DNA from: a virus
Virus record (IMG/VR): IMGVR_UViG_3300020154_000003
Location: 62,001 to 126,000 of that record
Reading direction: 5' to 3' (one strand)
Length of the DNA stretch: 64,000 nt
The position numbers and the translations under genes are program-made. The notes beneath the pieces were generated by a model. That model did not search any database, was not told the DNA's origin, and worked only from the letters and a program-made list of their open reading frames with translations. Each line of letters begins with the position of its first letter. Positions within the stretch are counted from its first letter, which is position 1. Shown piece after piece: positions 30,480 to 49,874 of the stretch.

Positions 30480-30887
30480 ATGAAAAAGTACAATCTCTAT
30501 TTGGATGATGTTAGAAAGCCAATTGATTCTTTGGATTATACCAAGAATAAGGCATATGTTACAGAAGAATGGGAGATCGTAAGATCATATGATGCTTTTG
30601 TGGCGCATATTACGAAGCATGGTTTGCCCGAACTTGTTTCGTTCGACCATGACTTGGCAGAGCCACATTATCATGAAAGCATGTATAAAGATGGGAAGGT
30701 TTATATGAAATATTTGGAAACCATTTCTGAAAAAACTGGCATGGATTGCGTTAAGTGGTTGGTGGAATACTGTCTCGATAACGGAAAAAAATTCCCAAAT
30801 TGGTACTTACACACCATGAATCCAGTTGGCCACGAGAACATGAAATCGTACATAATGTCGTTTTTGAAGCATTCAAGCACGATTTAG
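30480..30887 (+). CDS. Cyclic-phosphate-processing receiver-like protein, 135 aa
   Basis: The pattern LYLDDVRKP at the N-terminus, LVSFDHDLAE near 60, GMDCVKWLVEYC near 95 and HTMNPVGHENM near 115 matches the predicted cREC family, a receiver-like fold thought to act on cyclic phosphates in RNA repair. T4-type RNA repair genes also lie in this window (43407, 48813), which supports a role in RNA end healing. Family recall, not a search, so activity is unproven. Confidence 0.7.
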   Translation: MKKYNLYLDDVRKPIDSLDYTKNKAYVTEEWEIVRSYDAFVAHITKHGLPELVSFDHDLAEPHYHESMYKDGKVYMKYLETISEKTGMDCVKWLVEYCLDNGKKFPNWYLHTMNPVGHENMKSYIMSFLKHSSTI

Positions 30888-30951
30888 TATAGTTTACATT
30901 ATATTGGCATTAGGTTCGCATAAGGACTAATGTATTTAACCCCAAAGTGTA

Positions 30952-31266
30952 ATGAAACTGTTTGATAAGGTTAGTAATTTCCAAGAAGGCAAGGCAAATG
31001 TCCTTTATAATGAGATCGTTGATAAATTATCAGGTGATACTACCAATGAGAAAATCAGAACCGTTTGCCTTGACATTCTTGATAAGAAAATCAAGTTTGC
31101 TAACTCGCATAGAAAAAAAGGGAAAATAAATTTGATGGAAAATGAAATTTTCTTTGCAAATACGATAATTCATAATATCTTTGCGCCAGAGTATTCGATC
31201 ATCATCTCGAACGATGAGTTCGGACTCTCAGGAAGAAAAATCAAAAATAAATGGGAAAAACTGTAA
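30952..31266 (+). CDS. Hypothetical protein, 104 aa
   Basis: A basic, mostly helical protein. It lies between the receiver-like gene and a tiny ORF cassette. No motif is recognised. Confidence 0.5.
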   Translation: MKLFDKVSNFQEGKANVLYNEIVDKLSGDTTNEKIRTVCLDILDKKIKFANSHRKKGKINLMENEIFFANTIIHNIFAPEYSIIISNDEFGLSGRKIKNKWEKL

Positions 31267-31318
31267 CATTTTATAATTTTTTCCGTATTTACTAACAAAC
31301 CAGATAATACATTCGAAA

Positions 31319-31435
31319 ATGAAAACTTTAATATCATCAGTAACTTTAGAAGCATTAGCATTGAACGCTATGGCGGTTGCCTTAGTGGAGGATGATATGC
31401 GTCATGGGTTTTCTGATATTATAGTTGGATTCTAA
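31319..31435 (+). CDS. Tiny peptide, 38 aa
   Basis: It starts MKTLISSVTLEALALNAM, with a hydrophobic first half and an acidic second half. A strong terminator lies 23 bases downstream. Its promoter is weak: TACATTCG ends 3 bases before the ATG, one base off TANNTTTG. It is grouped with the other tiny cassettes by architecture. Confidence 0.4.
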   Translation: MKTLISSVTLEALALNAMAVALVEDDMRHGFSDIIVGF

Positions 31436-31458
31436 AAAAATAACAACATCAAATCAGG

Positions 31459-31486
31459 AAACCCGACCGAAAGTCGGGTTTTTTGT
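31459..31486 (+). terminator. Intrinsic terminator
   Basis: AAACCCGAC-CGAAA-GTCGGGTTT followed by TTTG. Nearly the same stem ends the cassettes at 39880 and 51455. Confidence 0.85.
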
Positions 31487-31517
31487 TTTTAGGAGTTCTT
31501 TGAAAATAAAAAGTAAT

Positions 31518-31699
31518 CGATGCGTGGTGGAATTGGTATACACTGCCTTTGAAACGCGATAAAACACATGAGCAACCAGTAAGCTGTTGTCATGATGCGC
31601 TGAGTAGTTGGACTGTCCGATGAAATCTAATCGGGCTGCGGGGGATAAACCGTGGGTTGTTTTCAACATCCAATACAGGTTCGAGTCCTGTCGCTGAAG
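31518..31699 (+). ncRNA. Long tRNA-Leu-like element, about 180 nt
   Basis: The 5' part (TGCGTGGTGGAATTGG) is a leucine-type acceptor/D region and the 3' end has a perfect T-arm ACAGG-TTCGAGT-CCTGT. About 100 extra bases with strong hairpins lie between (CATGA(G)CAAC/GTTGTCATG, CCGAT/ATCGG). The acceptor ends pair over only 3 bp and no anticodon can be fixed. It could be a decayed leucine tRNA with an insertion, or another RNA. Confidence 0.35.
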
Positions 31700-31717
31700 A
31701 TTGCTAGTAATTAAAAT

Positions 31718-31794
31718 GGTGCATTGGTGAAGTTGGTTATCATGCTTGCCTGTCACGCAAGAGTTCACGGGTTCGAGTCCCGTATGCACCGCCA
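31718..31794 (+). tRNA. tRNA-Asp(GTC) with encoded CCA
   Basis: Acceptor GGTGCAT/ATGCACC, loop CTGTCAC on CTTGC/GCAAG, and G73-CCA encoded, unlike most of the array. Confidence 0.9.
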
Positions 31795-31797
31795 CTT

Positions 31798-31869
31798 AGT
31801 CAGTGGGTACGTAGGTATGTATGTCCGGCTGTCACCCGGAAGAAGCGGGTTCAATTCCCGTACTGACTG
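31798..31869 (+). tRNA. tRNA-Asp(GTC), second
   Basis: Acceptor AGTCAGT/ACTGACT; loop CTGTCAC on TCCGG/CCGGA. A different body from the first Asp tRNA. Confidence 0.85.
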
Positions 31870-31895
31870 CGAAGGATGGTTGCAAACATCAGGGT

Positions 31896-31967
31896 TGTAT
31901 GTTCGTCTAGGGGTCTAGGACACTCCCTTCATCGGGGGAAACATTGGTTCGAATCCAATACATACTC
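31896..31967 (+). tRNA. tRNA-Glu-like with shortened anticodon loop
   Basis: D-arm TCGTCTAGGGGTCTAGGAC and the whole body align with bacterial tRNA-Glu. One base is missing between positions 27 and 43: stem CTCCC/GGGGG closes only TTCATC. Depending on pairing the anticodon could read TTC, TCA or CAT. Two normal Glu(TTC) tRNAs exist at 33039 and 33317. Confidence 0.5.
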
Positions 31968-31972
31968 AAATT

Positions 31973-32080
31973 GGTTGTGTAGTTTATGCGACTGTAAAAT
32001 CGGTCGGGCGTGTGATGCGCAGCATGTTTGGTTAGAATACTCTGGAATGAGAGAAGCAGGTTCGAATCCTGACACAACCG
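31973..32080 (+). ncRNA. tRNA-like element of 108 nt
   Basis: Acceptor GGTTGTG/CACAACC is a perfect 7 bp and the T-loop TTCGAAT is normal. The interior has two anticodon-like hairpins (CGACTG-TAAAAT-CGGTCG and CTCT-GGAATG-AGAG) and a D-loop-like GTTTGGTTAGA between them. The isotype is unresolved; it may be a fused or inserted tRNA. Confidence 0.45.
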
Positions 32081-32094
32081 CAAAAAAAGAAGAA

Positions 32095-32220
32095 ATGAAA
32101 ATTGAATTTATCACAATTGGGAACGTGCAGTTTTGGAGAGTCACAACATATGACTATTCATATAGCAGCAAAGATTTAGGTAAAGCTATTTTCAAATGCA
32201 TTGGCAGAATGCCCCAATGA
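32095..32220 (+). CDS. Small protein, 41 aa, stop inside a tRNA
   Basis: It starts MKIEFITIGN right after the 108-nt tRNA-like element. Its last codons ATG-CCC-CAA-TGA form the first ten bases of tRNA-Leu(CAA). Unknown function. Confidence 0.5.
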   Translation: MKIEFITIGNVQFWRVTTYDYSYSSKDLGKAIFKCIGRMPQ

Positions 32221-32294
32221 TGGAACTGGTAGTCATGCCACACTCAAAATGTGGTGCTCGTAAGGGCGTGTAGGTTCGAATCCTACTTGGGGTA
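32211..32294 (+). tRNA. tRNA-Leu(CAA)
   Basis: Class II tRNA with loop CTCAAAA on CCACA/TGTGG; acceptor GCCCCAA/TTGGGGT. It overlaps the preceding gene by 10 bases. Confidence 0.88.
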
Positions 32295-32304
32295 CAATAA
32301 ATAT

Positions 32305-32376
32305 GGGGCCATCGTATAATGGCTATTACTCCTGACTTGCACTCAGGGAATTAGGGTTCGAATCCCTATGGCTCCA
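32305..32376 (+). tRNA. tRNA-Ala(TGC)
   Basis: Acceptor GGGGCCA/TGGCTCC, loop CTTGCAC on CCTGA/TCAGG. The next gene starts one base later. Confidence 0.9.
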
Positions 32377-32377
32377 C

Positions 32378-32590
32378 ATGTATAAGAAATATAGTAAAGA
32401 AGAGTTTGGAAAAATATTTAACAAAGTTGTTGAAGAAGCTTTTTCAGAAGATGAAGTAGGTGAAACTGGTGTGTTGATTAAAGCGGGTGATATGGTGGTA
32501 TATACTAGTAGAGAGTTTTACGAAGAATTTAAAACTGATTTAATAAGACAATCACTCAAACCAGATGGAACCACTACGGAAGGAAATTAA
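32378..32590 (+). CDS. Hypothetical acidic protein, 70 aa
   Basis: The ATG is one base past tRNA-Ala, so its mRNA is probably released by tRNA processing. Helical, acidic, no motif. It overlaps the next gene by 26 bases. Confidence 0.55.
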   Translation: MYKKYSKEEFGKIFNKVVEEAFSEDEVGETGVLIKAGDMVVYTSREFYEEFKTDLIRQSLKPDGTTTEGN

Positions 32591-32765
32591 TACTAGATTC
32601 AAATTTGCTAAAGAGCAAGGTGAAATCTTTTTTAAACAGATAAAGAATGTTGAACGTGGAGGTGGAAATGTAGTCTCTTGTCTCGCAGCAAGAAAATATA
32701 GACAGGCTGGAAGAATTTACGATCATTATCAAAAGGAGTTTACTAAATATATAAACCAGAAATGA
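32565..32765 (+). CDS. Hypothetical basic protein, 66 aa
   Basis: Basic and helical with a central CLAARKYRQAGRIYDHY. It overlaps the previous gene in another frame. No family. Confidence 0.5.
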   Translation: MEPLRKEINTRFKFAKEQGEIFFKQIKNVERGGGNVVSCLAARKYRQAGRIYDHYQKEFTKYINQK

Positions 32766-32799
32766 AAAAGAAGGCACGATTATGTCGCCACGATAGCAA

Positions 32800-32884
32800 G
32801 GCTTCGTGGTGGAACGGCAGACACGCTAGACTTAAAATCTAGTGCTCAGTAATGGGCGTATGGGTTCAAGTCCCATCGAGGCTA
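32800..32884 (+). tRNA. tRNA-Leu(TAA)
   Basis: Class II; loop CTTAAAA on CTAGA/TCTAG; acceptor GGCTTCG/CGAGGCT with two G-U pairs. Confidence 0.88.
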
Positions 32885-32905
32885 CAATTTAAATGTAGTA
32901 AAGTT

Positions 32906-33034
32906 ATGAATGAAAAAAGATTAGAGCAATTAAGAGAAACGTGGGTTAAGAACGTAATGAAAGTTCAGAACATCACAAGAGCAGAGGCTGAAGTTTTATA
33001 TAGTAAAATTCAACCTCACAATTTAGCCAAGTAA
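32906..33034 (+). CDS. Small basic protein, 42 aa
   Basis: The ATG at 32906 gives MNEKRLEQLRETWVKNVM, a single amphipathic helix-rich protein between two tRNAs. Unknown. Confidence 0.45.
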   Translation: MNEKRLEQLRETWVKNVMKVQNITRAEAEVLYSKIQPHNLAK

Positions 33035-33038
33035 AAAT

Positions 33039-33111
33039 GGCGCATAGGACGATAGGCTAAGTCACAACCCTTTCAAGGTTGAAAAACAGGGTTCGAGTCC
33101 CTGATGCGCTA
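33039..33111 (+). tRNA. tRNA-Glu(TTC)
   Basis: Loop CTTTCAA on CAACC/GGTTG; acceptor GGCGCAT/ATGCGCT. Confidence 0.88.
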
Positions 33112-33113
33112 CG

Positions 33114-33311
33114 ATGGAACAAAAGAAATTTAAGTTAGTCTTTGATGTTGAAAAACTTGTCAAAGAAGGTAAGGCAACCATAATACCTGAGCATGAAGTT
33201 CAAAATTCTTTTAGGAGAATTAATGCTGAAATGAAAAAAGCACATCGTGATTTTAGACGTAAATCAAAGATGTCAGAACTGAGGGCCAGTAAGATTATAT
33301 TGAATTCTTAA
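33114..33311 (+). CDS. Small basic protein, 65 aa
   Basis: The ATG follows tRNA-Glu by 2 bases. The second half is very basic (RDFRRKSK region), so nucleic-acid binding is possible. No family. Confidence 0.5.
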   Translation: MEQKKFKLVFDVEKLVKEGKATIIPEHEVQNSFRRINAEMKKAHRDFRRKSKMSELRASKIILNS

Positions 33312-33316
33312 TTAAG

Positions 33317-33388
33317 GCTCCCATCGAATAACGGTTAGTTCGCGTCACTTTCAATGACGAAATAGGGGTTCGATTCCCCTTGGGAGTA
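33317..33388 (+). tRNA. tRNA-Glu(TTC), second
   Basis: Loop CTTTCAA on CGTCA/TGACG; acceptor GCTCCCA/TGGGAGT. Confidence 0.86.
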
Positions 33389-33446
33389 CAAAAAAAGTTC
33401 TTTGAAATTTTGAATATTGTAACTTGTTTATTAAGTTTACATAAAT

Positions 33447-33519
33447 GGCGATATAGTATAACGGCTTATTACGTCCCTCTCATAAGGGGAAAAAGATGGT
33501 TCGATTCCATCTATCGCTA
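33447..33519 (+). tRNA. tRNA with CAT anticodon (Met or Ile2)
   Basis: Loop CTCATAA on TCCCT/GGGGA; acceptor GGCGATA/TATCGCT. It lacks initiator features, so it is elongator Met or lysidine-modified Ile. Confidence 0.8.
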
Positions 33520-33522
33520 CTT

Positions 33523-33598
33523 ACGACAGAATAATCACAAGTGGTGCTTGTGGCTTCCGTGCTTTGGAAGTGATCATGGTTCGATTCCATCTGTCGTT
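33523..33598 (+). tRNA. Irregular tRNA with GCT anticodon and long D-stem
   Basis: Acceptor ACGACAG/CTGTCGT is perfect. The D-arm is an unusual 6-bp stem CACAAG/CTTGTG, the loop is GTGCTTT on CTTCC/GGAAG, and no long variable arm is present although GCT is a serine anticodon. A normal Ser(GCT) is at 54393. Confidence 0.5.
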
Positions 33599-33605
33599 AC
33601 AACAT

Positions 33606-33693
33606 CGCGGGATAGAGTAGTGGCCTAACTCGTCAGTCTCATAAGCTGAACCGTCTCATAAGGATGGCGTTGGTTCGAATCCAACTCCCGCTA
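33606..33693 (+). tRNA. Initiator-like tRNA(CAT) with duplicated anticodon hairpin
   Basis: Acceptor CGCGGGA/TCCCGCT leaves C1 unpaired, as in tRNA-fMet. The loop CTCATAA sits on TCAGT/GCTGA. The variable region is a second hairpin CCGTC-TCATAAG-GATGG. GTCTCATAAG occurs in both hairpins, which suggests a duplication of the anticodon arm. Confidence 0.65.
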
Positions 33694-33716
33694 CAAAATT
33701 TGTTAAACTTAAAGGT

Positions 33717-33911
33717 ATGTATTATGGATGTCCAAAATGTGGTTCAACTCAAGTAAGTGTTCTAACAGAAAATTATTATATCTGTTTGGGTTGTAACAAT
33801 ACATGGACTGAAAATATAAAAAATAAACATCGCGGGGTGGAGAAGTCGGTATCTCGTTTGGCTCATAACCAAAAGGTCGCAGGTTCAAGTCCTGCTCCCG
33901 CTACAAAGTAA
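33717..33911 (+). CDS. Zinc-ribbon protein running through a tRNA
   Basis: The first 40 residues hold a zinc ribbon, CPKCG then CLGCNNTW. The frame has no stop before tRNA-fMet and continues through it to a TAA at 33911, so the C-terminal 25 residues are encoded by the tRNA sequence. If the tRNA is cut out, the mRNA has no stop codon. Confidence 0.45.
   Translation: MYYGCPKCGSTQVSVLTENYYICLGCNNTWTENIKNKHRGVEKSVSRLAHNQKVAGSSPAPATK
33831..33903 (+). tRNA. tRNA-fMet(CAT), initiator
   Basis: CGCGGGGTGGAGAAGTC, unpaired C1-T72, and GGCTCATAACC anticodon arm with AGGTCG match bacterial initiator tRNA closely. Confidence 0.9.
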
Positions 33912-33912
33912 A

Positions 33913-34305
33913 ATGAGGAATAAGGAAAAACAAAAGCAGTATGCTAGGAAACATTATTTAAAGAATAAGGATAAAGTAAAAAAAAGTGCTGCATTTTATA
34001 AAAAAATTTCTAAAAAAAGAAATAAAGATTTTGTTATTGATTATTTATTAAAGCATCCATGTATTGATTGTTCAGAATCAGATATTGTTGTATTGGATTT
34101 TGATCATGTAAAAGATGATAAAATAATGAATATCGCTGATGCGATAAATAATGGTTGGTCAATAGAAAAACTAAAGACAGAAATTGAAAAATGTGTTATT
34201 CGATGTGCAAATTGTCATAGAAGAATAACACATCTAAGAAGACATAGCAGCTTGCGCATAGCTGGTAAACTTGTTAGATCGGATCATGCCCGAATCGGAC
34301 TTTAA
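33913..34305 (+). CDS. HNH homing-type endonuclease, 130 aa
   Basis: A Lys-rich N-terminus is followed by CIDCSESD, VVLDFDHVKDDK, and CANCHRRITHLRR: the paired Cys-x2-Cys zinc sites and the DFDH of HNH enzymes. It sits between tRNA genes, a common site of free-standing homing endonucleases in T4-like phages. Its C-terminus (after about residue 110) may be non-native. Confidence 0.85.
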   Translation: MRNKEKQKQYARKHYLKNKDKVKKSAAFYKKISKKRNKDFVIDYLLKHPCIDCSESDIVVLDFDHVKDDKIMNIADAINNGWSIEKLKTEIEKCVIRCANCHRRITHLRRHSSLRIAGKLVRSDHARIGL

Positions 34306-34357
34306 TCTGCGGAGCAATAGCTTACATTGGGGTCTGAATCAAGTATGCTGCAATTAT

Positions 34358-34430
34358 GCTTTCGTAGCTTAGTGGCAAAAGCACCATCTCGACAAGGTGG
34401 GAACCGTGAGTTCGAGTCTCACCGAAAGTA
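34358..34430 (+). tRNA. tRNA-Val(GAC) with C33
   Basis: It aligns base for base with the Val(TAC) at 34622, but the loop is TCGACAA, giving C at position 33 where nearly all tRNAs have U. Acceptor GCTTTCG/CGAAAGT. Confidence 0.75.
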
Positions 34431-34431
34431 C

Positions 34432-34620
34432 ATGAATGTTAAAACAGTTGACGAAAAAATTATTGGCCTCACAATAGATGAGGCTAAAAAATTATGGGAT
34501 GATATTCGTGTTATAGAAATTGATGGAAATCAAACAGTAATAACAAGGAATTACGTTCTAATGAGAATGAATGTAAAAGTAAGAGACGGTAAAATTGTTG
34601 AGTTCGTCAACTTCGGATAA
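34432..34620 (+). CDS. I78-family-like peptidase inhibitor, 62 aa
   Basis: The ATG is one base past tRNA-Val. IIGLTIDEAKKLW, IRVIEIDGNQTVIT and YVLMRMNVKVRDGKI follow the pattern of potato-inhibitor-like I78 proteins (GxxxxEA, then the Arg-Val loop and RxN). It is cytoplasmic here, as there is no signal peptide. It may block a host protease. Confidence 0.6.
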   Translation: MNVKTVDEKIIGLTIDEAKKLWDDIRVIEIDGNQTVITRNYVLMRMNVKVRDGKIVEFVNFG

Positions 34621-34621
34621 C

Positions 34622-34694
34622 ACTTTCGTAGCTTAGTGGCAAAAGCATCTGCATTACAAGCAGACAACCGGGGGTTCGAGTCCCTCCGAAAGTA
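34622..34694 (+). tRNA. tRNA-Val(TAC)
   Basis: Loop ATTACAA on TCTGC/GCAGA; acceptor ACTTTCG/CGAAAGT. Confidence 0.88.
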
Positions 34695-34700
34695 CAACAT

Positions 34701-34774
34701 GCCCACGTAACTCAGTGGTTCAGAGAGGTCGCCTTACAAGCGATCAGTCGGGAGTTCGATTCTCTCCGTGGGTA
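34701..34774 (+). tRNA. tRNA-Val(TAC), second
   Basis: Loop CTTACAA on GTCGC/GCGAT; acceptor GCCCACG/CGTGGGT. Its body differs from the first. Confidence 0.86.
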
Positions 34775-34775
34775 C

Positions 34776-35126
34776 TTATTTTTTAAGATTCTTGAAAAAA
34801 GGTATGACATATTTTATCCAAGCGTATGGCTTACGCTCGAATAAATAAGTCAGGTTGCTTTCATTATCATAAGCTTCATGCTCAAACGGATTTTGACGAT
34901 AAGCTTTGTAATGATCCTTGGTAGCCAATCTCTTAATTAAATAGAAGATACCATAAAGAATCCAATGAAATATAAAACCCATTTCAACTTGTTGGTGGAA
35001 ATGAACTAACTCATGATTGATAAGAACGTGATCATTCAATTTTGATTTATCTTTTAAGAAGATAAAAATGAAAATTGACATACCGTTAAAGTTTTTTAGG
35101 AGTTTAGGTGCTACAATTTTGAACAT
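34776..35126 (-). CDS. HExxH metalloprotease-like membrane protein, 116 aa
   Basis: INHELVHFHQQVEMG (residues about 38-52) is a zinc-peptidase HExxH motif, followed by a hydrophobic helix (FIFHWILYGIFYLI) and HEAYDNES, which may supply a third ligand. The protein is short and basic. The substrate is unknown. Confidence 0.65.
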   Translation of the reverse strand: MFKIVAPKLLKNFNGMSIFIFIFLKDKSKLNDHVLINHELVHFHQQVEMGFIFHWILYGIFYLIKRLATKDHYKAYRQNPFEHEAYDNESNLTYLFERKPYAWIKYVIPFFKNLKK

Positions 35127-35140
35127 AAGAAGGTTTATTA

Positions 35141-35148
35141 ATAAATAC
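35141..35148 (-). promoter_or_regulatory. Late-type promoter motif GTATTTAT
   Basis: Coding-strand CAGTATTTATT lies 14 bases before the metalloprotease-like gene. Confidence 0.5.
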
Positions 35149-35156
35149 TGAAAAAA

Positions 35157-35762
35157 GTGAAAATAGAATTAAAAAATAAGAGTTGGTTTTCTAGTGATTT
35201 TCACTTAGGTCACACAAATATTGCAGGGAAAAAAGTATCGAAATGGAATGGCGGCTATAGGGATTTCGATAGTGTTAGCCAGATGGATGAAACGATTATA
35301 AATACAATCAATCGCTATGTTGGAGTAGAGGACACGTTGTTTTTTTTAGGTGATTTTACATTCGCAAGAAAAGAAGCAGTGGCTAATTATCGTGATAGAA
35401 TTTATTGTCAAACAATTCATTTTGTAAAAGGTAATCATGATCCGCACGTTGACATGTATGCGGAAAAGTTTACTTCAGTAGGGACTGAACTTTTATTCGA
35501 ATACGAACCAAACAAACGATTGTACCTCCATCATTTCTCACACAGAGTATGGCACAGTTCGCACAGAGGTACAATTCATTTGTATGGCCATTCACATGGG
35601 ACAATTCCTGATCATGGTAAATCTATGGATGTTGGGGTTGATGTAGCCTACAGAATGTTCGGAGAATATAGACCATTCTCACTTGAAGAAATAATTGATA
35701 TAATGGCAAAAAAGGAGATACCAAATCTTGATCATCACAGAGCCAAGTTGGTAAGAGGATAA
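35157..35762 (+). CDS. Calcineurin-like phosphoesterase, 201 aa
   Basis: The metal-site motifs are in order: FSSDFHLGHTNI (GD-H variant), FFLGDFTF, FVKGNHD, and HLYGHSHG. The start is a GTG at 35157. It overlaps the second phosphoesterase by one base. Such phage enzymes hydrolyse phosphodiesters or nucleotides. Confidence 0.85.
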   Translation: MKIELKNKSWFSSDFHLGHTNIAGKKVSKWNGGYRDFDSVSQMDETIINTINRYVGVEDTLFFLGDFTFARKEAVANYRDRIYCQTIHFVKGNHDPHVDMYAEKFTSVGTELLFEYEPNKRLYLHHFSHRVWHSSHRGTIHLYGHSHGTIPDHGKSMDVGVDVAYRMFGEYRPFSLEEIIDIMAKKEIPNLDHHRAKLVRG

Positions 35763-36475
35763 TGAAAGTAGTAGTAATTGGAGATATTCATGGTAGAGAC
35801 AATTGGAAAGCAATTATTCCTAAAGTAGACGAATACGATAAAATTGTCTTCGTGGGGGACTATACTGACAGTTATGAATTGCCAAATCCAGTAATTCTTC
35901 AAAACCTACAGGAGATCATTAAATTCAGAAGAGAATTTCCTGATAAAGTCGTGACATTGGTGGGGAACCATGATATTGCTTATATGTGGTATGGTGAAAC
36001 ATTATTCTTAAATAACGGTTTTAGACCTGAAGCAGCACACGATTTATCTACAATTTTTAGAGCACATCACGATATTTTTGATGTTGCATGGCAAAGCGGT
36101 AAAACTATCATCACCCATGCTGGTATTACAAATGGATGGATGAGATACAATGCTGAAACGATTCAACATGCTCGTGAAAGATATAAAACTGAAACGATTG
36201 CAGATACATTTAATATGATGTTACGTAATTATACGTATAATCGGTGTTTACATCAACTCAGTGGTAAAAGAGGTGGCCCGTATAACTACGGAGGAATTAC
36301 TTGGGCAGATAAACAAGAAACCGAAAAAGACGGTTTGAAAGGATACATACAGGTAGTAGGACACACACCTGTTGAAGACATCACAACAGTGAAGTTGGAA
36401 GATTATGATTTCCAAATTACGTATTGTGATGTATTATGGAAAAAGACATCATTTTATGAATTTATTATTGACTAA
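35762..36475 (+). CDS. Metallophosphoesterase, 237 aa
   Basis: VVIGDIHGRDNW, FVGDYTDSY, LVGNHDIAYMW, THAGIT and VVGHTPVE are the five PPP/calcineurin motifs. It is coupled to its neighbours (TAATG overlaps at both ends), giving a three-gene operon. It may be a Ser/Thr phosphatase or ApaH-type hydrolase. Confidence 0.87.
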   Translation: MKVVVIGDIHGRDNWKAIIPKVDEYDKIVFVGDYTDSYELPNPVILQNLQEIIKFRREFPDKVVTLVGNHDIAYMWYGETLFLNNGFRPEAAHDLSTIFRAHHDIFDVAWQSGKTIITHAGITNGWMRYNAETIQHARERYKTETIADTFNMMLRNYTYNRCLHQLSGKRGGPYNYGGITWADKQETEKDGLKGYIQVVGHTPVEDITTVKLEDYDFQITYCDVLWKKTSFYEFIID

Positions 36476-36698: not shown

Positions 36699-36699
36699 C

Positions 36700-40441: not shown

Positions 40442-40529
40442 GCATCCGTGGCAGAATGGAGAATGATGCCCCACACTTTTAATGTGGACTGTCGTAAGAC
40501 TAACGTAGGTTCGATCCCTACCGGATGCA
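40442..40529 (+). tRNA. tRNA-Lys(TTT) with a class II variable arm
   Basis: Acceptor GCATCCG/CGGATGC is perfect; loop CTTTTAA on CCACA/TGTGG reads AAA. The variable region is 17 bases with GTC-GTAA-GAC hairpin, and the D-loop is Leu-like. Lysine tRNAs normally have a 5-base variable loop. Confidence 0.7.
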
Positions 40530-40543
40530 CAAACGTAGATTTA

Positions 40544-43389: not shown

Positions 43390-43390
43390 A

Positions 43391-43419
43391 AAAAAGGGGT
43401 GAGTAATTAATACTCACCC
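43391..43419 (-). terminator. Terminator overlapping the end of pseT
   Basis: GGGTGAGTA/TACTCACCC, 9 bp, with a U tract on the minus strand; the stem includes the last codons of pseT. Confidence 0.85.
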
Positions 43420-44315
43420 TTGCTTACTTGGAACACTTTAAGTCCGTTTTCTCTCCACATGTTGACAACTGGTTGACGATCCTCCAGTACTGCCCGGACA
43501 GAATATTTCCCCTTCACATTTTCCACCCACAATTCTCTCTTTACGACAATATCCTTACGGAAATCATCCATCTTACGCATCAACAGCAGGTCATACTCAA
43601 CACCATATGTTCTTAGCGACAGTTCGGTGCCCTCACGGGATTCCTCACTTCTACCAGTACAGATGATGATCGTGTAACCAGCAGCTTTGTAACAAAGATA
43701 GGTTTCGTATACAACCTGATCAAGATCATCCCGATCAACTTTATGCCAATCGAAATAACCACGCTTACCGTTCGCGTGAAACAATGTGCCATCCAGATCA
43801 ATCATAACGGCTTTAGGAAGCGCAGGATCGAATTCTGGTTCTTTGTACACGTAAGTCTTTTTAGACTGGTTTTGCAAAGCAAAGCTGTCCATTAAGATCA
43901 TGTAGTCTTCGTACATTTTCTTGATAACTTCCTCACCGACTGGTCTTTCACGAACACTGTCCCTCTCAACTGCCTTCTCGAATGAGATGTCAAATACCAT
44001 GAATTCAACGTCCGCACGATATTCCACGTACTTGATCATATCCTCAATGTATCTGGATTTGACGTGAGTAGCGTCAAGCAGGATGTTAAGTCTTCTATCC
44101 AAAGCCACATCGATGGCGTTCAAAACCAATTGAGTAATCATATCCTCAATCTTTGGTTCGCAAAATCCTTGATCCTTCAACATATAGCGGAAGTCATCCC
44201 GGTTAATTCTCACATAATCAGGGTTTTTGCGGACATATTCCTTTGACCACGTTGATTTACCTGCTGCAGGGATTCCGATAAGGATTTTGACGATTTGATT
44301 CTTTTTCTGTGCCAT
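43407..44315 (-). CDS. pseT: Polynucleotide 5'-kinase/3'-phosphatase, T4 PseT (Pnkp)
   Basis: The 302-residue enzyme matches T4 Pnkp (301). The kinase half has P-loop GIPAAGKSTWS and the RINRDDFR and ERDSVRERPVG catalytic segments. The phosphatase half has the haloacid-dehalogenase motif VMIDLDGTLF near residue 168, IICTGRSE and LEDRQPVV. In T4 it heals tRNA ends cut by host anticodon nucleases before RNA ligase seals them, which fits this tRNA-rich genome. Confidence 0.95.
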   Translation of the reverse strand: MAQKKNQIVKILIGIPAAGKSTWSKEYVRKNPDYVRINRDDFRYMLKDQGFCEPKIEDMITQLVLNAIDVALDRRLNILLDATHVKSRYIEDMIKYVEYRADVEFMVFDISFEKAVERDSVRERPVGEEVIKKMYEDYMILMDSFALQNQSKKTYVYKEPEFDPALPKAVMIDLDGTLFHANGKRGYFDWHKVDRDDLDQVVYETYLCYKAAGYTIIICTGRSEESREGTELSLRTYGVEYDLLLMRKMDDFRKDIVVKRELWVENVKGKYSVRAVLEDRQPVVNMWRENGLKVFQVSKGEY

Positions 44316-44391: not shown

Positions 44392-44399
44392 TATATTTG
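44392..44399 (+). promoter_or_regulatory. Bacteroidota minus-7 element TATATTTG
   Basis: Lies 14 bases before the ATG at 44414; no clear minus-33 match. Confidence 0.45.
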
Positions 44400-44413
44400 T
44401 GAAAAGTACAAGG

Positions 44414-44704
44414 ATGCCTGAATTTAGATATGAAGATTTGCCTAACGGGGAAAAAACTCGTGCAAAAGATGTGTATCGGCAGTTAGATGTATTCCGAAAG
44501 TTTCAAAATAAAGCGTCATTACCTCTCTTTACTTACCTTTTTAAGGAAAGGGGAGAACATCTGTTTGTTGAGGTATTTGTGAGAAAATCCAATAGAAATC
44601 TCCTTGATTTTTTTAACCGAGTAGATGCAGACGTTCATGAAATAATTATAATGAATGTTATGTTTAACGAATCGCTATACGCCCACGACTTTTTATATGA
44701 ATAA
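44414..44704 (+). CDS. Hypothetical protein, 96 aa
   Basis: The ATG at 44414 is chosen over a GTG at 44399 that overlaps the promoter. Basic/acidic mixed helix-strand protein. It overlaps the next gene by 8 bases. Confidence 0.5.
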   Translation: MPEFRYEDLPNGEKTRAKDVYRQLDVFRKFQNKASLPLFTYLFKERGEHLFVEVFVRKSNRNLLDFFNRVDADVHEIIIMNVMFNESLYAHDFLYE

Positions 44705-44993
44705 ATATCAACGCTTAATTAAGGATTTGGAAGAAACTGGTACTGGAAAGATGAAAGTTTTCGGTCAGTCCATGAAACCCTTAATTTACACAGGCTCCCT
44801 ACTCACCTTCACGAAAGTCTCTGAATACGAAGTCGGGGATATTGTCTTTTGCAAAGTAAAAGGCAGATTCATTGACGCACATCTCATAACCAAAAAAGAT
44901 CAAAACAAAGGCTTCATGATCTCCAATAATCATGGGTATGATAACGGATGGACTAAAACAATTTATGCTAAAGTAACTAATATCGAAGCATGA
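44697..44993 (+). CDS. S24/S26 (signal-peptidase-like) protein, 98 aa
   Basis: MKVFGQSMKPLIYTGSLLTF matches the GxSMxP nucleophile box, and VGDIVFCKVKGRFIDAHLITKK supplies the barrel and a Lys. NNHGYDNGWT is also typical. No transmembrane anchor, so it resembles LexA/UmuD-type self-cleaving or small peptidase folds. Coupled to both neighbours. Confidence 0.72.
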   Translation: MNKYQRLIKDLEETGTGKMKVFGQSMKPLIYTGSLLTFTKVSEYEVGDIVFCKVKGRFIDAHLITKKDQNKGFMISNNHGYDNGWTKTIYAKVTNIEA

Positions 44994-45331
44994 AATATTT
45001 ATTTGTCGGAGAGAAAAGAAGTGAATTGGCTAAAAAAATGAAAGTTACGTGGACTGACGGAAGGTTGGCTGCAAAACAATTATTTGATGCTTTCGTATAT
45101 TGTGGTATCGATCCTGAAAAACAGGAATTTTGCAACTGGTTTGAAGGGGGTAAAACTAAGGTACGATCTTACAACGGAACTATCGTAGCAATGGGTAAAA
45201 AGGTAAGTGATGCTCTTACTAAGGAAAAAATTAATCATATTTACATTGTTCATCCAGCAGCCAGAGGCAAAATCAGGAAAAAAGAATTATATTTCCAACA
45301 CGTAAAACAAGCACTAATAAAAACAAATTAA
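44990..45331 (+). CDS. Uracil-DNA-glycosylase-like protein, 113 aa
   Basis: The C-terminal IYIVHPAARGKIRKKELYF recalls the HPS/A-R segment of UDG-superfamily enzymes, and TIVAMGKKV fits the preceding strand. It is much shorter than true UDGs, with no clear catalytic Asp. Tentative. Confidence 0.45.
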   Translation: MKYLFVGEKRSELAKKMKVTWTDGRLAAKQLFDAFVYCGIDPEKQEFCNWFEGGKTKVRSYNGTIVAMGKKVSDALTKEKINHIYIVHPAARGKIRKKELYFQHVKQALIKTN

Positions 45332-45344
45332 ACTATAAACCAAA

Positions 45345-45893
45345 ATGAAAGGATTACTTATTGCCCTACTATTATTCGGTATTCTCGGTGTCACATTTTT
45401 CGTTATGTACATCTCTTACGACAACAAGTTTGTCACCACCAAGAATCTTTACGAAGCACAGGTCTCACAAGACCAGATCATCCACGATGAAATGTGGAAA
45501 GTTATTCAGCAGCAAGCTGGAGTTTCTGAAAAGTACAGCGAAGATTTCACTCGTAACTATAAAGAAATTATGAATGCCAGAAACTATGGTGGTGAATTGA
45601 TGAAATGGATTACTGAACAGAACCCTAATTTCAGTCCTGATTTATATTCCAAACTCATGAACACCATTGAAGTTCAAAGAAATAAATTTACTGTAGTACA
45701 ATCCAAGCTGATCTCCATTCATAATGAAATGAAAAATCAACTTACATTATTTCCGAGTAGATTGTTTTTGGTAAATATTGGTGGCCACGTATTGCCTGAC
45801 CTTAACATCGTAACTAGTTCACGTACTGATGAAGTATTCAGAACCGGGAAGGATGATGATGTCCAGCTTTTCAAGTCTGACACTGCAAAATAA
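45345..45893 (+). CDS. LemA-family membrane protein, 182 aa
   Basis: One N-terminal transmembrane helix (residues 3-24) is followed by the LemA-type helical bundle (NLYEAQVSQDQIIHDEMWKV...). It is followed by a membrane protein, as in other large phages. Role unknown. Confidence 0.65.
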   Translation: MKGLLIALLLFGILGVTFFVMYISYDNKFVTTKNLYEAQVSQDQIIHDEMWKVIQQQAGVSEKYSEDFTRNYKEIMNARNYGGELMKWITEQNPNFSPDLYSKLMNTIEVQRNKFTVVQSKLISIHNEMKNQLTLFPSRLFLVNIGGHVLPDLNIVTSSRTDEVFRTGKDDDVQLFKSDTAK

Positions 45894-45944
45894 TTCATGG
45901 GGTGCTGCCACTGGTAGCACCCTTCACTTCTTAAACCAACTCCA

Positions 45945-47096
45945 ATGGTTCTCTATCTAGCTTTTGCTATTCCGGTCTTAGCTGCTTTAGTTCTATACAC
46001 ATTCTTCAAACACAAAACCAAGATATGGGAAGTAGCAATTCCGATGCTCTTCACAATCCTTTTGATTTTGGGTGCAAAAGCCATTTGTGTTAGTTCACTA
46101 ACTGGCGACACAGAATATTTGGGTGGGATGGTTTATGAAGTTAGATATTACGAAGAATGGGATGAATACATTCACCAGACTTGTAGTAGAGAATGTTGCT
46201 GCTCAAAAGATTCAGATGGACATGAATCATGTAGCACCGAATACTACGATTGTTCTTACGTGGATAACCATCCAGAATATTGGGAGGTAGTGACAACCCT
46301 AGGCTCATTCAATGTCTCTGAAAATTATTATAGGTATCTGGTAAAAAAATTCGAAGTTGCCCCGACCTTTAAAGACATGCATAGAGATTATCACAGCATC
46401 GATGGTGATATGTACTTTGCGAAATGGGATAACACAGACGAAAAGTTGGAACCTGTCACTATTACTCATTCGTATGAAAATCGACCTAAAGTATCAAGCA
46501 GCATTTATCGCTTCGAAGAAGTTGATACTTTTGATATAAGACAATATAAACCATACAACTATCCTGAAGTTAATGGACTGAAACAGCGTGTTATATTGGG
46601 TTATGACGATCCTAAAGCGGAACATGCACTACAAGTTCTTAATTCAAGGTTGGGTAAAGAGAAACAAGTAAGGGTTTATTTTTTGATTTTTAAAAATCAA
46701 CCATTAGATGCTGGTTCGATTCAGGAACGGTATTGGGAAGGTGGAAATAAAAATGAGTTGAATGTGTGCATCGGGATTGACGATAATAATAACGTCAAGT
46801 GGGCCTACGTTTTCTCGTGGACAGAACAAAGCGAAGTCAAAGTAAATATCAGAACGCATATTCAGGAATCAAAAAAGCTTGATCTTTATGAATATGTTAA
46901 CTATACGAAAGCAGAGGTTCTTGAGAATTGGGTTAGGAAGCAATTTAAAGATTTTGATTATCTGACAATCGAACCAACCATGAAGCAGATCATATGGATT
47001 TATATCTTGACGATCATCTTCAATGCAGGTATTTGTGTCTGGATAGTTAATAATGAATTTGATGATGAACCGAGAGGAAAATACTACTGGAAATGA
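45945..47096 (+). CDS. Cys-rich membrane protein, 383 aa
   Basis: Two N-terminal transmembrane helices (residues 1-20 and 26-48) precede a large outside domain containing CSRECCCSKDSDGHESC and YYDCS. A C-terminal helix (about 345-365) anchors it again. Paired with the LemA-like gene; possibly envelope remodelling or superinfection exclusion, by inference. Confidence 0.6.
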   Translation: MVLYLAFAIPVLAALVLYTFFKHKTKIWEVAIPMLFTILLILGAKAICVSSLTGDTEYLGGMVYEVRYYEEWDEYIHQTCSRECCCSKDSDGHESCSTEYYDCSYVDNHPEYWEVVTTLGSFNVSENYYRYLVKKFEVAPTFKDMHRDYHSIDGDMYFAKWDNTDEKLEPVTITHSYENRPKVSSSIYRFEEVDTFDIRQYKPYNYPEVNGLKQRVILGYDDPKAEHALQVLNSRLGKEKQVRVYFLIFKNQPLDAGSIQERYWEGGNKNELNVCIGIDDNNNVKWAYVFSWTEQSEVKVNIRTHIQESKKLDLYEYVNYTKAEVLENWVRKQFKDFDYLTIEPTMKQIIWIYILTIIFNAGICVWIVNNEFDDEPRGKYYWK

Positions 47097-47569
47097 AAGT
47101 GAAACCAAGAATACCAGAAACTTTATACAAGTCGAGAGTCATATTACATTCACAAAAAAGAGCAAAGGAACGATACGACATATATCTGATCACTGACGTT
47201 TATTCCATCAACAGGGTAATACGAAGTGAACTGGAAGCTAAGAACCCAAATCCAAACACACTATTACTGCTGTATCGGGAAAATAAAAAATCAAATAGAT
47301 TTCATTATTTGGTGTATTGGAGGAATAACTATTATTGGGTGGTTTGGAATGATACATTGAAAACAATTCACACATTTATGCCGACCGATGGGCTACAAAC
47401 CAGAATAAGTAGGTTTACGAATTCCGTAGCTGCATTTTTATCGTGCAGAGGATTGATTGATATGCAGCAATATAGAAGAATGAAAATTCTTAATATCTCG
47501 AAAAAGAAGCCTTCTGCTTTGGTGCATAGTGATCTTGGTAAACATCATCATTTAGACCATAATCAATAA
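47093..47569 (+). CDS. Hypothetical basic protein, 158 aa
   Basis: HSQKRAKERYDIYL near residue 20 resembles the start of phage proteins with a small beta domain. ATGA overlap with the membrane gene. It overlaps the convergent kinase-like gene by 80 bases, so its C-terminus is doubtful. Confidence 0.5.
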   Translation: MKVKPRIPETLYKSRVILHSQKRAKERYDIYLITDVYSINRVIRSELEAKNPNPNTLLLLYRENKKSNRFHYLVYWRNNYYWVVWNDTLKTIHTFMPTDGLQTRISRFTNSVAAFLSCRGLIDMQQYRRMKILNISKKKPSALVHSDLGKHHHLDHNQ

Positions 47570-48173
47570 TCACGATTTCTGGCTGGCCATTTCTGTTGAC
47601 TTCTCCGTAGGAAGAGATTCTACTAAGATCGCCAGATGGCATGTCGTAATTCAGCATAAGATCAAGAATTGTGCTTGCGAATTCGTTATTCTCAACCATT
47701 TCCAGTTGTTCTGGTGTCATCTCTGACCCCATCTTCCCCCTGCCTTTGTTTTCAGCATGTTTTTTCCAGAGATATGTGCTGAGAGTTTTGATGTCAATAC
47801 CAGTTAATTCTCGGAATCTTGTGGGTGTCACTCTTTTAGCATGTTCAGCCTCAATCCATTCGTCTTTAGGGTGTGTTTTGAAGACTTGGGCCACCATGTC
47901 CCTGATATAATAATCGTTGCTTAAACTGGCCTCTAATTCATTCTGAGCGATGCCTTTGGCGTTCTTTGCAAGTTTCAGAACCGACTTATCGTCAATTTCG
48001 TATACAATCCGTGCGCTGCCAGCACCAATTTTTCTTAAATGTTGGGCGCAGTAACGTACTCTTTCAGCGAATGAGCGTAAATTGGCGAATTCCTCATGGT
48101 TGAATGACGCTGGATAGTCCTCTTTCATGAAATATCCTGCTAATTCTTCAAAAACCATGTCGCGAATGTTCAT
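47490..48173 (-). CDS. Protein-kinase-fold protein, 227 aa
   Basis: IGAGSARIVYEIDD is a Gly-rich loop, SVLKLAKN gives the Lys, QNELEAS a possible helix-C Glu, and IVIIDYGLND a DFG-like site. The catalytic loop is SGDLSRISS, lacking the usual HRD. It may phosphorylate host proteins or be inactive. Confidence 0.6.
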   Translation of the reverse strand: MNIRDMVFEELAGYFMKEDYPASFNHEEFANLRSFAERVRYCAQHLRKIGAGSARIVYEIDDKSVLKLAKNAKGIAQNELEASLSNDYYIRDMVAQVFKTHPKDEWIEAEHAKRVTPTRFRELTGIDIKTLSTYLWKKHAENKGRGKMGSEMTPEQLEMVENNEFASTILDLMLNYDMPSGDLSRISSYGEVNRNGQPEIVIIDYGLNDDVYQDHYAPKQKASFSRY

Positions 48174-48190
48174 AATTTGCTAACTTTACT

Positions 48191-48198
48191 ATAAATAC
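48191..48198 (-). promoter_or_regulatory. Late-type promoter motif GTATTTAT
   Basis: Coding-strand TTGTATTTATAG lies 17 bases before the kinase-like gene. Confidence 0.5.
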
Positions 48199-48248
48199 AA
48201 CAAAAACCTGTATTTTACGTATTACCAAGTATCAAAAACACTCATTTT

Positions 48249-48485
48249 ATGAAAGTACGAGACTTAATTAAGCAATTGGCAAAGTTTGATCAGAATTCCA
48301 CTGTGATTGTGACTTCTAGCAATTTTGAATTGGATGGAAGTCAAGTGGCTGTCACTTCTGTTTACGGAACTGAAGAGGGTTCAAAAAAAGAACAGACTTT
48401 CAGAGATGCTTTCGATGGGGAATCATACAACAAAACCACATGGTCAACACAGGGAGGAAAACTCAAAGTGGTGAAAATATCTTAA
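48249..48485 (+). CDS. Hypothetical protein, 78 aa
   Basis: MKVRDLIKQLAKFDQNSTV resembles small phage proteins of unknown role that begin with an LI-x-L-x-x-D-x-x-x-V helix-strand unit. Ends 2 bases before the next gene. Confidence 0.55.
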   Translation: MKVRDLIKQLAKFDQNSTVIVTSSNFELDGSQVAVTSVYGTEEGSKKEQTFRDAFDGESYNKTTWSTQGGKLKVVKIS

Positions 48486-48487
48486 CA

Positions 48488-48802
48488 ATGAATTATTTAG
48501 AAAAAGAAATAGCCCTTTTCAAAAGGAGAAAACAACTTTTGAACCAGCCAATATTGAAAGTTGTTGGGGAAGGTTGTCAAGCAATTAGCGAATTTCAATG
48601 GATTGGAAAAGTAATCGGTTTCGAAGAAGATAAGGAAAAGGGTTGGACTGTGGCAGTCATCAAAATTTTGAAACATAATCGTTCATACGGTGATGCCAGA
48701 GACGCTAAGGAGGATGAAATTTATACTTATCCAATAGCGAACAAGTATTACATGATCAATGACATTCAAAACGTTGATGGTGTATGGATACTTTACACAT
48801 AG
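48488..48802 (+). CDS. Hypothetical protein, 104 aa
   Basis: The start MNYLEKEIALFKRR is just past the previous stop. A helix then a beta-barrel-like domain. Ends with TAG, 10 bases before the ligase gene. Confidence 0.55.
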   Translation: MNYLEKEIALFKRRKQLLNQPILKVVGEGCQAISEFQWIGKVIGFEEDKEKGWTVAVIKILKHNRSYGDARDAKEDEIYTYPIANKYYMINDIQNVDGVWILYT

Positions 48803-48812
48803 AAATGCGGAT

Positions 48813-49874
48813 ATGTTACTAACTAGAGATCAATTCAGGGAAGGTGTCTTTAAAAGAGATAAATACAGATGTGTCGTGTGCTTTAATCCTGCAGTTGATG
48901 CTCACCATATCATTGAAAGAAAATTATGGGATGACGGTGGATACTATTTGGATAACGGGGTTTCTCTTTGTGAACGTTGTCACATGAAAGCAGAACAAAC
49001 GATTATTTCTTGCGATGAGTTAAGAAATTCTGTTGGTATCACAACTAATCATTTACCAGCAATATTGTTTGATCGATTGATGGATGACAACAGAATCACG
49101 AATATAGGAAAGGTAAGTTTCGATAAATGGGGTAACCTAATACTGGCAGACGGTAGCCGTAGACCGGGGCCAATGTTTAATACGGAACAGGTTCAAAAAA
49201 TCATAAAGCAAGCCAATTTATTACATCTGTTTGTGGAAGATAAATATGTAAAATATCCAAGGACGTATCACTTACCATACAGCGAAAAAGCCTCTGCAGA
49301 CGATAAAAGATTATCCAGTACTGAGCAATTCGCAGGTAAGGAAGTGGTAGCAACCATCAAACTTGATGGGGAAAACACCACTTTGTATCAAGATCATATC
49401 CATGCAAGGTCTTTGGATTCAGCACATCATCCCTCTCGCGATTGGGTTAAAGGTTTGTGGGGAAGTTTCAAACATGAAATACCTGACGGTTGGAGAATTT
49501 GTGGTGAGAATGTTTACGCACTGCACACAATACCCTACAACAACTTAGAAACATACTTCTACGTTTTTTCCATATGGGATAATACGAATACCTGCCTTTC
49601 GTGGGATGAAACGGTTGCATACTGTGAAATGCTCGGACTAAAAACAGTACCCGTAATTTATCGTGGTGATTTTGATCAAGCGAAAATACAAGCTGCTTTT
49701 CCTGCAACACACAATGGTGATCCCACTGAAGGATATGTGGTTAGACTGACCGAACGTTTTCATTACGATGAGTTTGAAAATTCGTTAGCTAAATATGTGT
49801 CAAAGTCCTTCATTATCGAAGGCGCACAACATTGGATGCAGAATGCAATAATACCAAACAAGCTTTCTTCTTAA
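48813..49874 (+). CDS. HNH nuclease fused to RNA ligase, 353 aa
   Basis: Residues 1-75 are an HNH domain: CVVCFNPAVDAHHIIERKLW then SLCERCHMKAEQ. From about 140 a nucleotidyltransferase RNA ligase follows: adenylated-Lys motif ATIKLDGENTTLY, ARSLDS, WRICGENVYA (motif III-like), EGYVVRL (motif IV) and LAKYVSKS (motif V). It probably seals broken RNA after Pnkp healing. Both halves are intact; the ATG at 48813 avoids overlap. Confidence 0.88.
   Translation: MLLTRDQFREGVFKRDKYRCVVCFNPAVDAHHIIERKLWDDGGYYLDNGVSLCERCHMKAEQTIISCDELRNSVGITTNHLPAILFDRLMDDNRITNIGKVSFDKWGNLILADGSRRPGPMFNTEQVQKIIKQANLLHLFVEDKYVKYPRTYHLPYSEKASADDKRLSSTEQFAGKEVVATIKLDGENTTLYQDHIHARSLDSAHHPSRDWVKGLWGSFKHEIPDGWRICGENVYALHTIPYNNLETYFYVFSIWDNTNTCLSWDETVAYCEMLGLKTVPVIYRGDFDQAKIQAAFPATHNGDPTEGYVVRLTERFHYDEFENSLAKYVSKSFIIEGAQHWMQNAIIPNKLSS

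What the first reader, a model, noticed from the sequence alone, without database searches (positions are those of the whole stretch)
30480..49874. RNA-repair set: Pnkp, HNH-RNA ligase fusion and cyclic-phosphate receiver-like protein
T4 Pnkp and RNA ligase repair tRNAs cut by anticodon nucleases. Here Pnkp is joined by a ligase carrying an N-terminal HNH nuclease and by a predicted cyclic-phosphate-processing protein, in a genome full of tRNAs. The fusion puts a cutter and a sealer in one chain, which would suit processing of permuted or inserted tRNAs as well as defence.
Basis: partly seen in the sequence, partly recalled or inferred. Interest (0 to 1): 0.72.

Follow-up and report, generated by a model that had tools for sequence, protein, structure and literature searches.

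The report
Phage HNH nuclease–RNA ligase fusion enzyme
A giant phage with dozens of its own tRNA genes carries an enzyme that joins a DNA/RNA-cutting domain to an RNA-sealing domain; this fusion was already known from large phages, but comparison with relatives now shows that the cutter and the sealer are a recurring team, and that in bacteria the same sealer is paired with an RNA end-repair kinase instead.

Summary
The window, part of a 366-kb virus record, encodes a cREC protein, a T4/Pnkp1-type polynucleotide kinase-phosphatase and an HNH–RNA ligase fusion (better start 48813). They do not form an operon: they are 4–13 kb apart and Pnkp is on the other strand. Only the closest relative shares all three among 36 HNH-ligase contigs searched. 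The fusion itself is known (PHROG 24030; Iyer et al. 2021, PMC7824862).

New here:
(1) All 97 aligned fusions keep the HNH catalytic and ligase residues, and HNH is the most conserved part, so it is no remnant.
(2) The NTase-only ligase relatives in cells are fused or adjacent to a polynucleotide kinase/HD protein in 66 of 70 loci, against 3 of 97 HNH fusions. HNH takes the kinase's place.
(3) A stand-alone HNH family, sister to the fused one, lies within 1.3 kb of an RNA ligase gene at 18 of 63 loci, always on the same strand; four loci read ligase–HNH–HD-kinase.

Best reading: an RNA-repair sealer whose HNH domain makes ligatable 5'-phosphate/3'-hydroxyl ends. RNA cutting by HNH is inferred, not shown.

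The parts
48813..49874 (+). HNH-RNA ligase fusion gene (353 aa; HNH about residues 1-64, conserved linker 65-146, nucleotidyltransferase 147-353)
   Evidence: Pfam HNH 4.9e-5 and RNA_ligase 2.5e-34; PHROG 24030 2.9e-124; AlphaFold2 model pLDDT 92.6
48813..49004 (+). HNH nuclease domain; H31, H32, N48, H57 and C20, C23, C53 invariant in 97 fusions
   Evidence: weak match to the HNH of IscB
49251..49871 (+). NTase-only RNA ligase domain, nucleotidyl-lysine K183 (codon 49359-49361), no C-terminal domain
   Evidence: VIA Z 15.6 to T4 Rnl2 residues 1-233 and about 15 to NgrRnl; K183, E232, E306, K327 invariant
43407..44315 (-). Polynucleotide 5'-kinase/3'-phosphatase (302 aa, T4 Pnkp layout)
   Evidence: closest solved relatives Pnkp1 4xrp 2.4e-56 and T4 Pnkp 1ltq 1.8e-33
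30480..30887 (+). cREC (cyclic-phosphate processing receiver-like) protein; ends in TAG
   Evidence: PF20274 3.4e-23, PHROG 1479 6.1e-28; both acidic motifs (LDDVR, SFDHDL) visible in the sequence

Best explanation
The fusion is the sealing enzyme of a phage RNA-repair kit that keeps tRNAs (phage and host) usable when host defences cut them. The C-terminal domain adenylates a 5'-phosphate end and joins it to a 3'-hydroxyl (inferred from fold, motifs and the cellular partners of the same ligase clade). The N-terminal HNH is an active metal-dependent nuclease working in the same pathway. HNH enzymes leave 5'-phosphate and 3'-hydroxyl ends, exactly what this ligase needs, so HNH can make clean, ligatable ends on a damaged or mis-ended RNA (or RNA-containing duplex) without a kinase or phosphatase. 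That would explain why it takes the place that a polynucleotide kinase/HD end-healer holds beside the same ligase in cells. Shown: intact catalytic residues under strong purifying selection, recurrent coupling of HNH with RNA ligases, and the kinase-for-HNH exchange. Inferred: RNA as the HNH substrate, tRNA as the target, cut before seal.
For: 97 of 97 fusions keep HH/N/H, the cysteines and ligase K183. HNH is the most conserved part: mean pairwise identity 0.63 against 0.51 for the ligase; pN/pS 0.18 against 0.19. Cellular relatives of the ligase have a kinase or HD partner in the same ORF or within 1.5 kb in 66 of 70 loci, the HNH fusions in 3 of 97; those partners include 2H, EEP and MJ1316 RNA-end domains. 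Stand-alone HNH genes lie within 1.3 kb of an RNA ligase gene in 18 of 63 loci, 22 of 22 ligases within 6 kb co-directional, two ligase families; PF09414 in 15 of 111 near against 3 of 142 far proteins, Fisher p=8e-4. Four loci read ligase-HNH-HD-kinase. 20 of 21 large contigs chosen for lacking a ligase beside the stand-alone HNH (for most of them) hold an RNA ligase in the record. In named phages, 12 of the 16 records hit by the stand-alone HNH are hit inside HNH-ligase fusions. Contigs with the fusion often carry RlaP (24/35), cREC (20/36), Thg1 (16/35).
Against: No activity has been measured. The nearest solved HNH is the DNA-cutting HNH of IscB, and well-studied HNH enzymes cut DNA (own knowledge). 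RNA-repair genes are not clearly clustered with the fusion along phage genomes. Most stand-alone HNH loci (45 of 63) have no ligase within 1.3 kb. The neighbour counts are of the best-scoring relatives only, and two of the three seeds of the stand-alone HNH search already lay near a ligase.
Confidence: 0.45

Rival explanations
1. Two jobs on one chain: the HNH cuts host or superinfecting DNA while the ligase repairs damaged RNA (the suggestion of Iyer et al. 2021, PMC7824862).
For: HNH domains of known function mostly cut DNA; the weak structural relative is the HNH of IscB.
Against: Two unlinked jobs do not predict a stand-alone HNH gene beside RNA ligases of two families and inside ligase-HD-kinase operons, nor the exchange of kinase for HNH.
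Confidence: 0.2
2. A nick-and-seal enzyme for RNA:DNA hybrids or RNA-primed DNA ends: HNH cuts the DNA strand, the Rnl2-like ligase seals an RNA 3'-OH to a 5'-phosphate across a bridging strand.
For: T4 Rnl2 and NgrRnl are duplex nick sealers (titles of 2hvr and 5cot); the HNH of IscB cuts the DNA strand of an RNA:DNA hybrid (own knowledge).
Against: The cellular partners of this ligase clade are RNA end-healing enzymes, not replication or R-loop proteins.
Confidence: 0.13
3. The HNH module is a nucleic-acid-binding or positioning domain that stands in for the auxiliary domain that this NTase-only ligase lacks; cutting is not its main role.
For: The ligase ends right after the NTase domain; T4 Rnl2 and NgrRnl each have one further domain (own knowledge); the 82-residue linker is well conserved.
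Against: The catalytic HNH residues would not need to be invariant in 97 of 97 fusions and 77 of 77 stand-alone genes; the cellular and phage ligase-only proteins of about 210 aa have no such domain.
Confidence: 0.1
4. Splicing of intron-bearing, inserted or permuted phage tRNAs by the fusion.
For: Cutter and sealer in one chain; 52 tRNA genes in the window.
Against: ARAGORN with introns allowed finds none in the 52 genes; forced-intron hits mostly join neighbouring genes or call a short insert inside a normal gene. Many relatives have no tRNA gene within 10 kb. Permuted genes were not searched for.
Confidence: 0.03
5. The HNH is a homing-endonuclease remnant that landed in a ligase gene.
For: Free-standing HNH homing genes are common in large phages (own knowledge).
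Against: Purifying selection, invariant residues, in-frame fusion at one position in all members, few fused/ligase-only changes on the tree.
Confidence: 0.02

Closest known systems
Rnl2 family with N-terminal HNH in jumbo phages (Iyer et al. 2021, PMC7824862) / PHROG 24030
   Same: Same domain order over the full length; same kind of phage (large, often tRNA-rich), also Caulobacter CcrSC/CcrBL9, Acinetobacter ME3, Salicola SCTP-2 and the archaeal virus HGTV-1.
   Different: This is another member. The stand-alone HNH partner, the ligase-HNH-HD-kinase operons and the kinase/HNH exchange are not described in the passages found there.
Bacterial end-healing/sealing loci: ligase with kinase-HD (Brevibacillus, Hahella) or ligase-kinase fusion beside MJ1316-EEP-2H (Streptomyces)
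   Same: The same NTase-only ligase clade, 45-56% identical over the matched segment.
   Different: They carry a kinase and phosphoesterase and no HNH in the ligase chain; the phage fusion carries HNH and almost never a neighbouring kinase.
T4 RNA ligase 2 and Naegleria RNA ligase (NgrRnl)
   Same: NTase fold (Z about 15) and motifs.
   Different: T4 Rnl2 has a C-terminal and NgrRnl an N-terminal domain that is missing here; about 18% identity.
Capnocytophaga Pnkp1 of the Pnkp1-Rnl-Hen1 complex (PMC4411300)
   Same: Closest solved relative of the window's Pnkp (4xrp, 2.4e-56; source organism from own knowledge).
   Different: No Hen1 (PF12623) was found in this genome; the ligase in the window is another type.
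Trypanosome RNA-editing machinery (editing ligase REL1)
   Same: Works like: a small NTase RNA ligase acting with an endonuclease on one substrate; REL1 (1xdn) matches at Z 13.6.
   Different: There the nuclease is an RNase III protein in a large guided complex (own knowledge), not an HNH on the ligase chain.

Membership tests
PHROG 24030 / phage HNH-RNA ligase fusion | N-terminal HNH with catalytic H, N, H and zinc cysteines | tested here: met
   H31 H32 N48 H57 C20 C23 C53 invariant in 97 of 97
PHROG 24030 / phage HNH-RNA ligase fusion | C-terminal PF09414 ligase with lysine motif, in one chain | tested here: met
   PF09414 2.5e-34; PHROG 24030 over residues 2-352 at 2.9e-124
T4 Rnl2-type ligase | NTase domain with motifs I-V | tested here: met
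   Z 15.6 to 1s68, motif residues invariant
T4 Rnl2-type ligase | Rnl2 C-terminal domain after the NTase domain | tested here: not met
   Alignment ends at residue 335-336 of 353 and near residue 233 of Rnl2; no room for the extra domain
T4 Rnl2-type ligase | Seals RNA nicks | not testable with these tools
   needs an enzyme assay
T4-type Pnkp | N-terminal P-loop kinase plus C-terminal HAD phosphatase, about 300 aa | tested here: met
cREC | PF20274 domain | tested here: met
   82.6 bits against cut-off 27; no relative of solved structure found by sequence
cREC | Opens cyclic phosphates | not testable with these tools
   a prediction in PMC7824862; PMC9503650 says it remains experimentally uncharacterized
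T4 Pnkp/Rnl1 tRNA-repair system | Rnl1 ligase partner (PF09511) | not tested
   PF09511 was not searched; the two ligases found are PF09414
Homing HNH endonuclease insertion | Sporadic insertion, decay or relaxed selection | tested here: not met
   purifying selection equal to the ligase, stable fusion
Pnkp1-Rnl-Hen1 system | Hen1 partner (PF12623) | tested here: not met
   no match in the 366-kb record, which may be incomplete

The most novel reading that the evidence does not exclude
An HNH nuclease that acts on RNA (or RNA:DNA duplexes) as the end-making step of RNA repair: phages replaced the kinase-based healing used by cells with a cut-fresh-ends-then-seal strategy, in one chain or as an HNH/ligase gene pair.
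Probability: 0.33. Interest if true: 0.78.

Novelty: new member of a known kind. Interest (0 to 1): 0.5.

Why it matters
If the HNH works on the ligase's RNA substrate, it would be a new way of RNA repair that needs no end-healing, a route by which large phages could escape anticodon nucleases that leave ends which are hard to seal, and a single-chain cut-and-join RNA tool. The kinase-for-HNH exchange and the gene pairs give a sharp, testable prediction for a fusion that has been on record since 2021 with only a guess about its purpose.

Tried and rejected
Three genes as one conserved module: rejected, only the window's phage and its close relative (L021/G002) have all three among 36 contigs, and positions are not clustered (cREC within 20 kb gives p=0.03 uncorrected). 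A conserved neighbour of the fusion: none, the best neighbour family occurs in 8 of 73 loci. tRNA introns: none. Fission of the fusion in phage LR745206: its neighbouring HNH belongs to the stand-alone family rather than being a cut-off N-terminus, although its ligase is sister to a fused one. The structural searches list mainly ligases, so the fold of the HNH and linker was not tested on its own. Sequence search of the PDB with the single protein gave only chance hits. Recoding of TAG: not clear, no ATG-started ORF of 150 aa or more ends in TAG but some short likely genes do. The tree of ligase domains was a quick one with many weak forks and two long rows; only the clustering of the fused label and the L013/L015 pair are used.
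Full report
Setting. The window is bases 62001-126000 of a 366,038-base virus record. It carries 52 tRNA genes, with 50 matches above Rfam's threshold, and many short ORFs, as expected of a very large tailed phage. The finding names three genes between 30480 and 49874.

Check of the observation. The 135-aa ORF at 30480-30887 matches cREC_REC (PF20274, 3.4e-23). The 302-aa ORF at 43407-44315 on the minus strand has a P-loop kinase and a HAD_PNKP phosphatase (4.5e-41). The ORF at 48759-49874 has HNH (4.9e-5, above the curated cut-off) and RNA_ligase (2.5e-34). Relatives start at the LLTRDxFRE motif, and the preceding ORF ends at 48802, so the gene most likely starts at 48813. The whole chain matches PHROG 24030, 'RNA ligase', at 2.9e-124. 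The Pnkp is closest to Pnkp1 of the Pnkp1-Rnl-Hen1 complex (4xrp, 2.4e-56) and then T4 Pnkp (1.8e-33) among solved structures. The genes are real but are not an operon.

What else the phage has. The same record encodes RlaP about 3 kb left of the window (58672-59037), Thg1 (133752-134186) and a second RNA ligase (233390-233881) of the NgrRnl/DRB0094 type, but no RtcB and no Hen1. This is a broad RNA-repair kit.

Is the set conserved? Among 36 contigs with the HNH-ligase, the Pnkp phosphatase domain was found in 4, cREC in 20, RlaP in 24 of 35, Thg1 in 16 of 35 and RtcB in 6 of 35, and most had further PF09414 ligases. Many contigs are fragments, so these are lower bounds. Distances to the HNH-ligase are mostly what random placement gives. 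Only the window's phage and its close relative (L021) have all three genes near one another. No gene is a regular neighbour of the fusion (best 8 of 73 loci). About half of the 60 loci scanned have tRNA genes within 10 kb, some up to 31, and the rest none.

The fusion. It is widespread: 33 phage records match the protein, among them Caulobacter, Acinetobacter and Salicola jumbo phages and the archaeal virus HGTV-1, and 318 IMG/VR stretches encode a relative. In an alignment of 97 fusions, R5, F8, C20, C23, H31, H32, N48, C53, H57 and E61 of the HNH part and K183, D185, G186, E232, E306, G307, K327 of the ligase are invariant or nearly so; the H, N, H and K positions have no exception. HNH is the most conserved region (mean pairwise identity 0.634; linker 0.540; ligase 0.512), and pN/pS over 17 pairs is 0.18 for HNH, 0.20 for the linker and 0.19 for the ligase (synonymous sites are near saturation, so these are upper guides). 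An AlphaFold2 model has mean pLDDT 92.6 and pTM 0.76. Residues 144-335 superpose on the T4 Rnl2 NTase domain (Z 15.6, rmsd 2.8, 176 residues) and on NgrRnl. The Rnl2 C-terminal domain is absent. The HNH resembles that of IscB weakly.

Same ligase, other partner. The best-scoring relatives in bacterial and archaeal genomes are mostly ligase-only. In Streptomyces and other Actinomycetota the ligase is fused to a kinase (AAA_33), and in the locus examined (L128) it lies beside a protein with MJ1316, EEP, 2H and PAP domains. In Brevibacillus and Hahella it lies beside a kinase-HD protein. Overall 66 of 70 such loci have a kinase or HD partner in the same ORF or within 1.5 kb, against 3 of 97 HNH fusions. 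The best-80 cap over-represents Actinomycetota, but 28 of the 32 short ligases show it too. On a quick tree the fused/ligase-only label changes about five times in 96 rows, against 26 in shuffles.

Split pairs. In the 635-kb phage LR745206 the ligase gene overlaps a stand-alone HNH gene (L015, 2995-3639 and 3632-3952), and on a Lokiarchaeota-binned contig (L116) the two are separated by a NUDIX gene. The stand-alone HNH family was then searched in viral contigs. In 63 loci left after removing near-copies, 18 have an RNA ligase gene within 1.3 kb, and all 22 ligases within 6 kb point the same way as the HNH. They belong to two blast-separable ligase families. PF09414 is the commonest family near the HNH (15 of 111 proteins against 3 of 142 farther away, Fisher p=8e-4). 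Four loci (L187, L194, L206, L217) read ligase-HNH-HD-kinase on one strand (the L194 kinase is assigned by similarity to the others). 20 of 21 further large contigs with this HNH have an RNA ligase in the record. The HNH residues are invariant in 77 of 77. Among 50,697 phage records, the HNH matches 16: four outside a fusion (including seeds) and 12 inside HNH-ligase fusions. Bias: two of the three seeds lay near a ligase, and only the 80 best relatives were read.

Mechanism. What is shown is an intact, selected HNH, coupled again and again to RNA ligases, in RNA-repair settings, where cells have an end-healing kinase. From general knowledge, HNH enzymes leave 5'-phosphate and 3'-hydroxyl ends, which ATP-dependent RNA ligases use, whereas most anticodon nucleases leave 2',3'-cyclic phosphate and 5'-hydroxyl, which need Pnkp or similar enzymes. 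The best reading is therefore that the HNH makes ligatable ends in the RNA-repair pathway. The HNH substrate is not shown, and DNA remains possible; that is why the confidence is only 0.45.

Known or new. Iyer et al. [quoted passage not shown] they also named cRec and its link to RNA ligases. The window gene is a new member of that kind. The kinase/HNH exchange, the split pairs and the ligase-HNH-HD-kinase operons were not found in the papers searched; the key earlier paper on RNA-repair systems (reference 178 there) was not found in the library, so priority is not certain.

Noticed in passing
window 40442-40530, 33606-33694, 52060-52144, 57487-57576 (+): tRNA genes with Lys, Met, Thr and Asn anticodons that have a long, class-II-like variable arm, with normal-length tRNAs of the same anticodon for Lys, Met and Asn elsewhere in the window. 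They might be charged by a non-cognate synthetase or escape nucleases. Similar long Asn and Phe tRNAs occur in L042, L044 and L070.
   Followed up: partly
window 27259-27333 (-) and 31896-31967 (+): tRNA-like genes with six-base anticodon loops; ARAGORN cannot assign an amino acid.
   Followed up: partly
window 61540-61613 and 63586-63659 (+): Two tRNAs with anticodon CUA. No ATG-started ORF of 150 aa or more in the window ends in TAG (0 of 33), but cREC and two other likely genes do. CUA tRNAs recur in L035, L037, L048, L051 and L064.
   Followed up: partly
window 44655-44993 (+): A small protein that looks like a signal-peptidase/S24-type fold (by eye) recurs right beside the stand-alone HNH gene in L191 (2128-2466) and L203 (5510-5833), and near it in L015 (4346-4642).
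   Followed up: no
L029, L030, L037: Predicted tmRNA genes within 10 kb of the HNH-ligase in phage contigs.
   Followed up: no
L104 5733-6161: Two truncated tandem copies of the first part of the HNH-ligase gene precede the full copy in a Desulfobacterales contig.
   Followed up: no
L128 6004-10643: Streptomyces ligase-kinase fusion beside an MJ1316-EEP-2H-PAP-central protein: a compact RNA end-repair locus.
   Followed up: partly
L194 6331-7062, L206 6572-7291: BtpA-family proteins inside the HNH-ligase-HD-kinase gene clusters.
   Followed up: no
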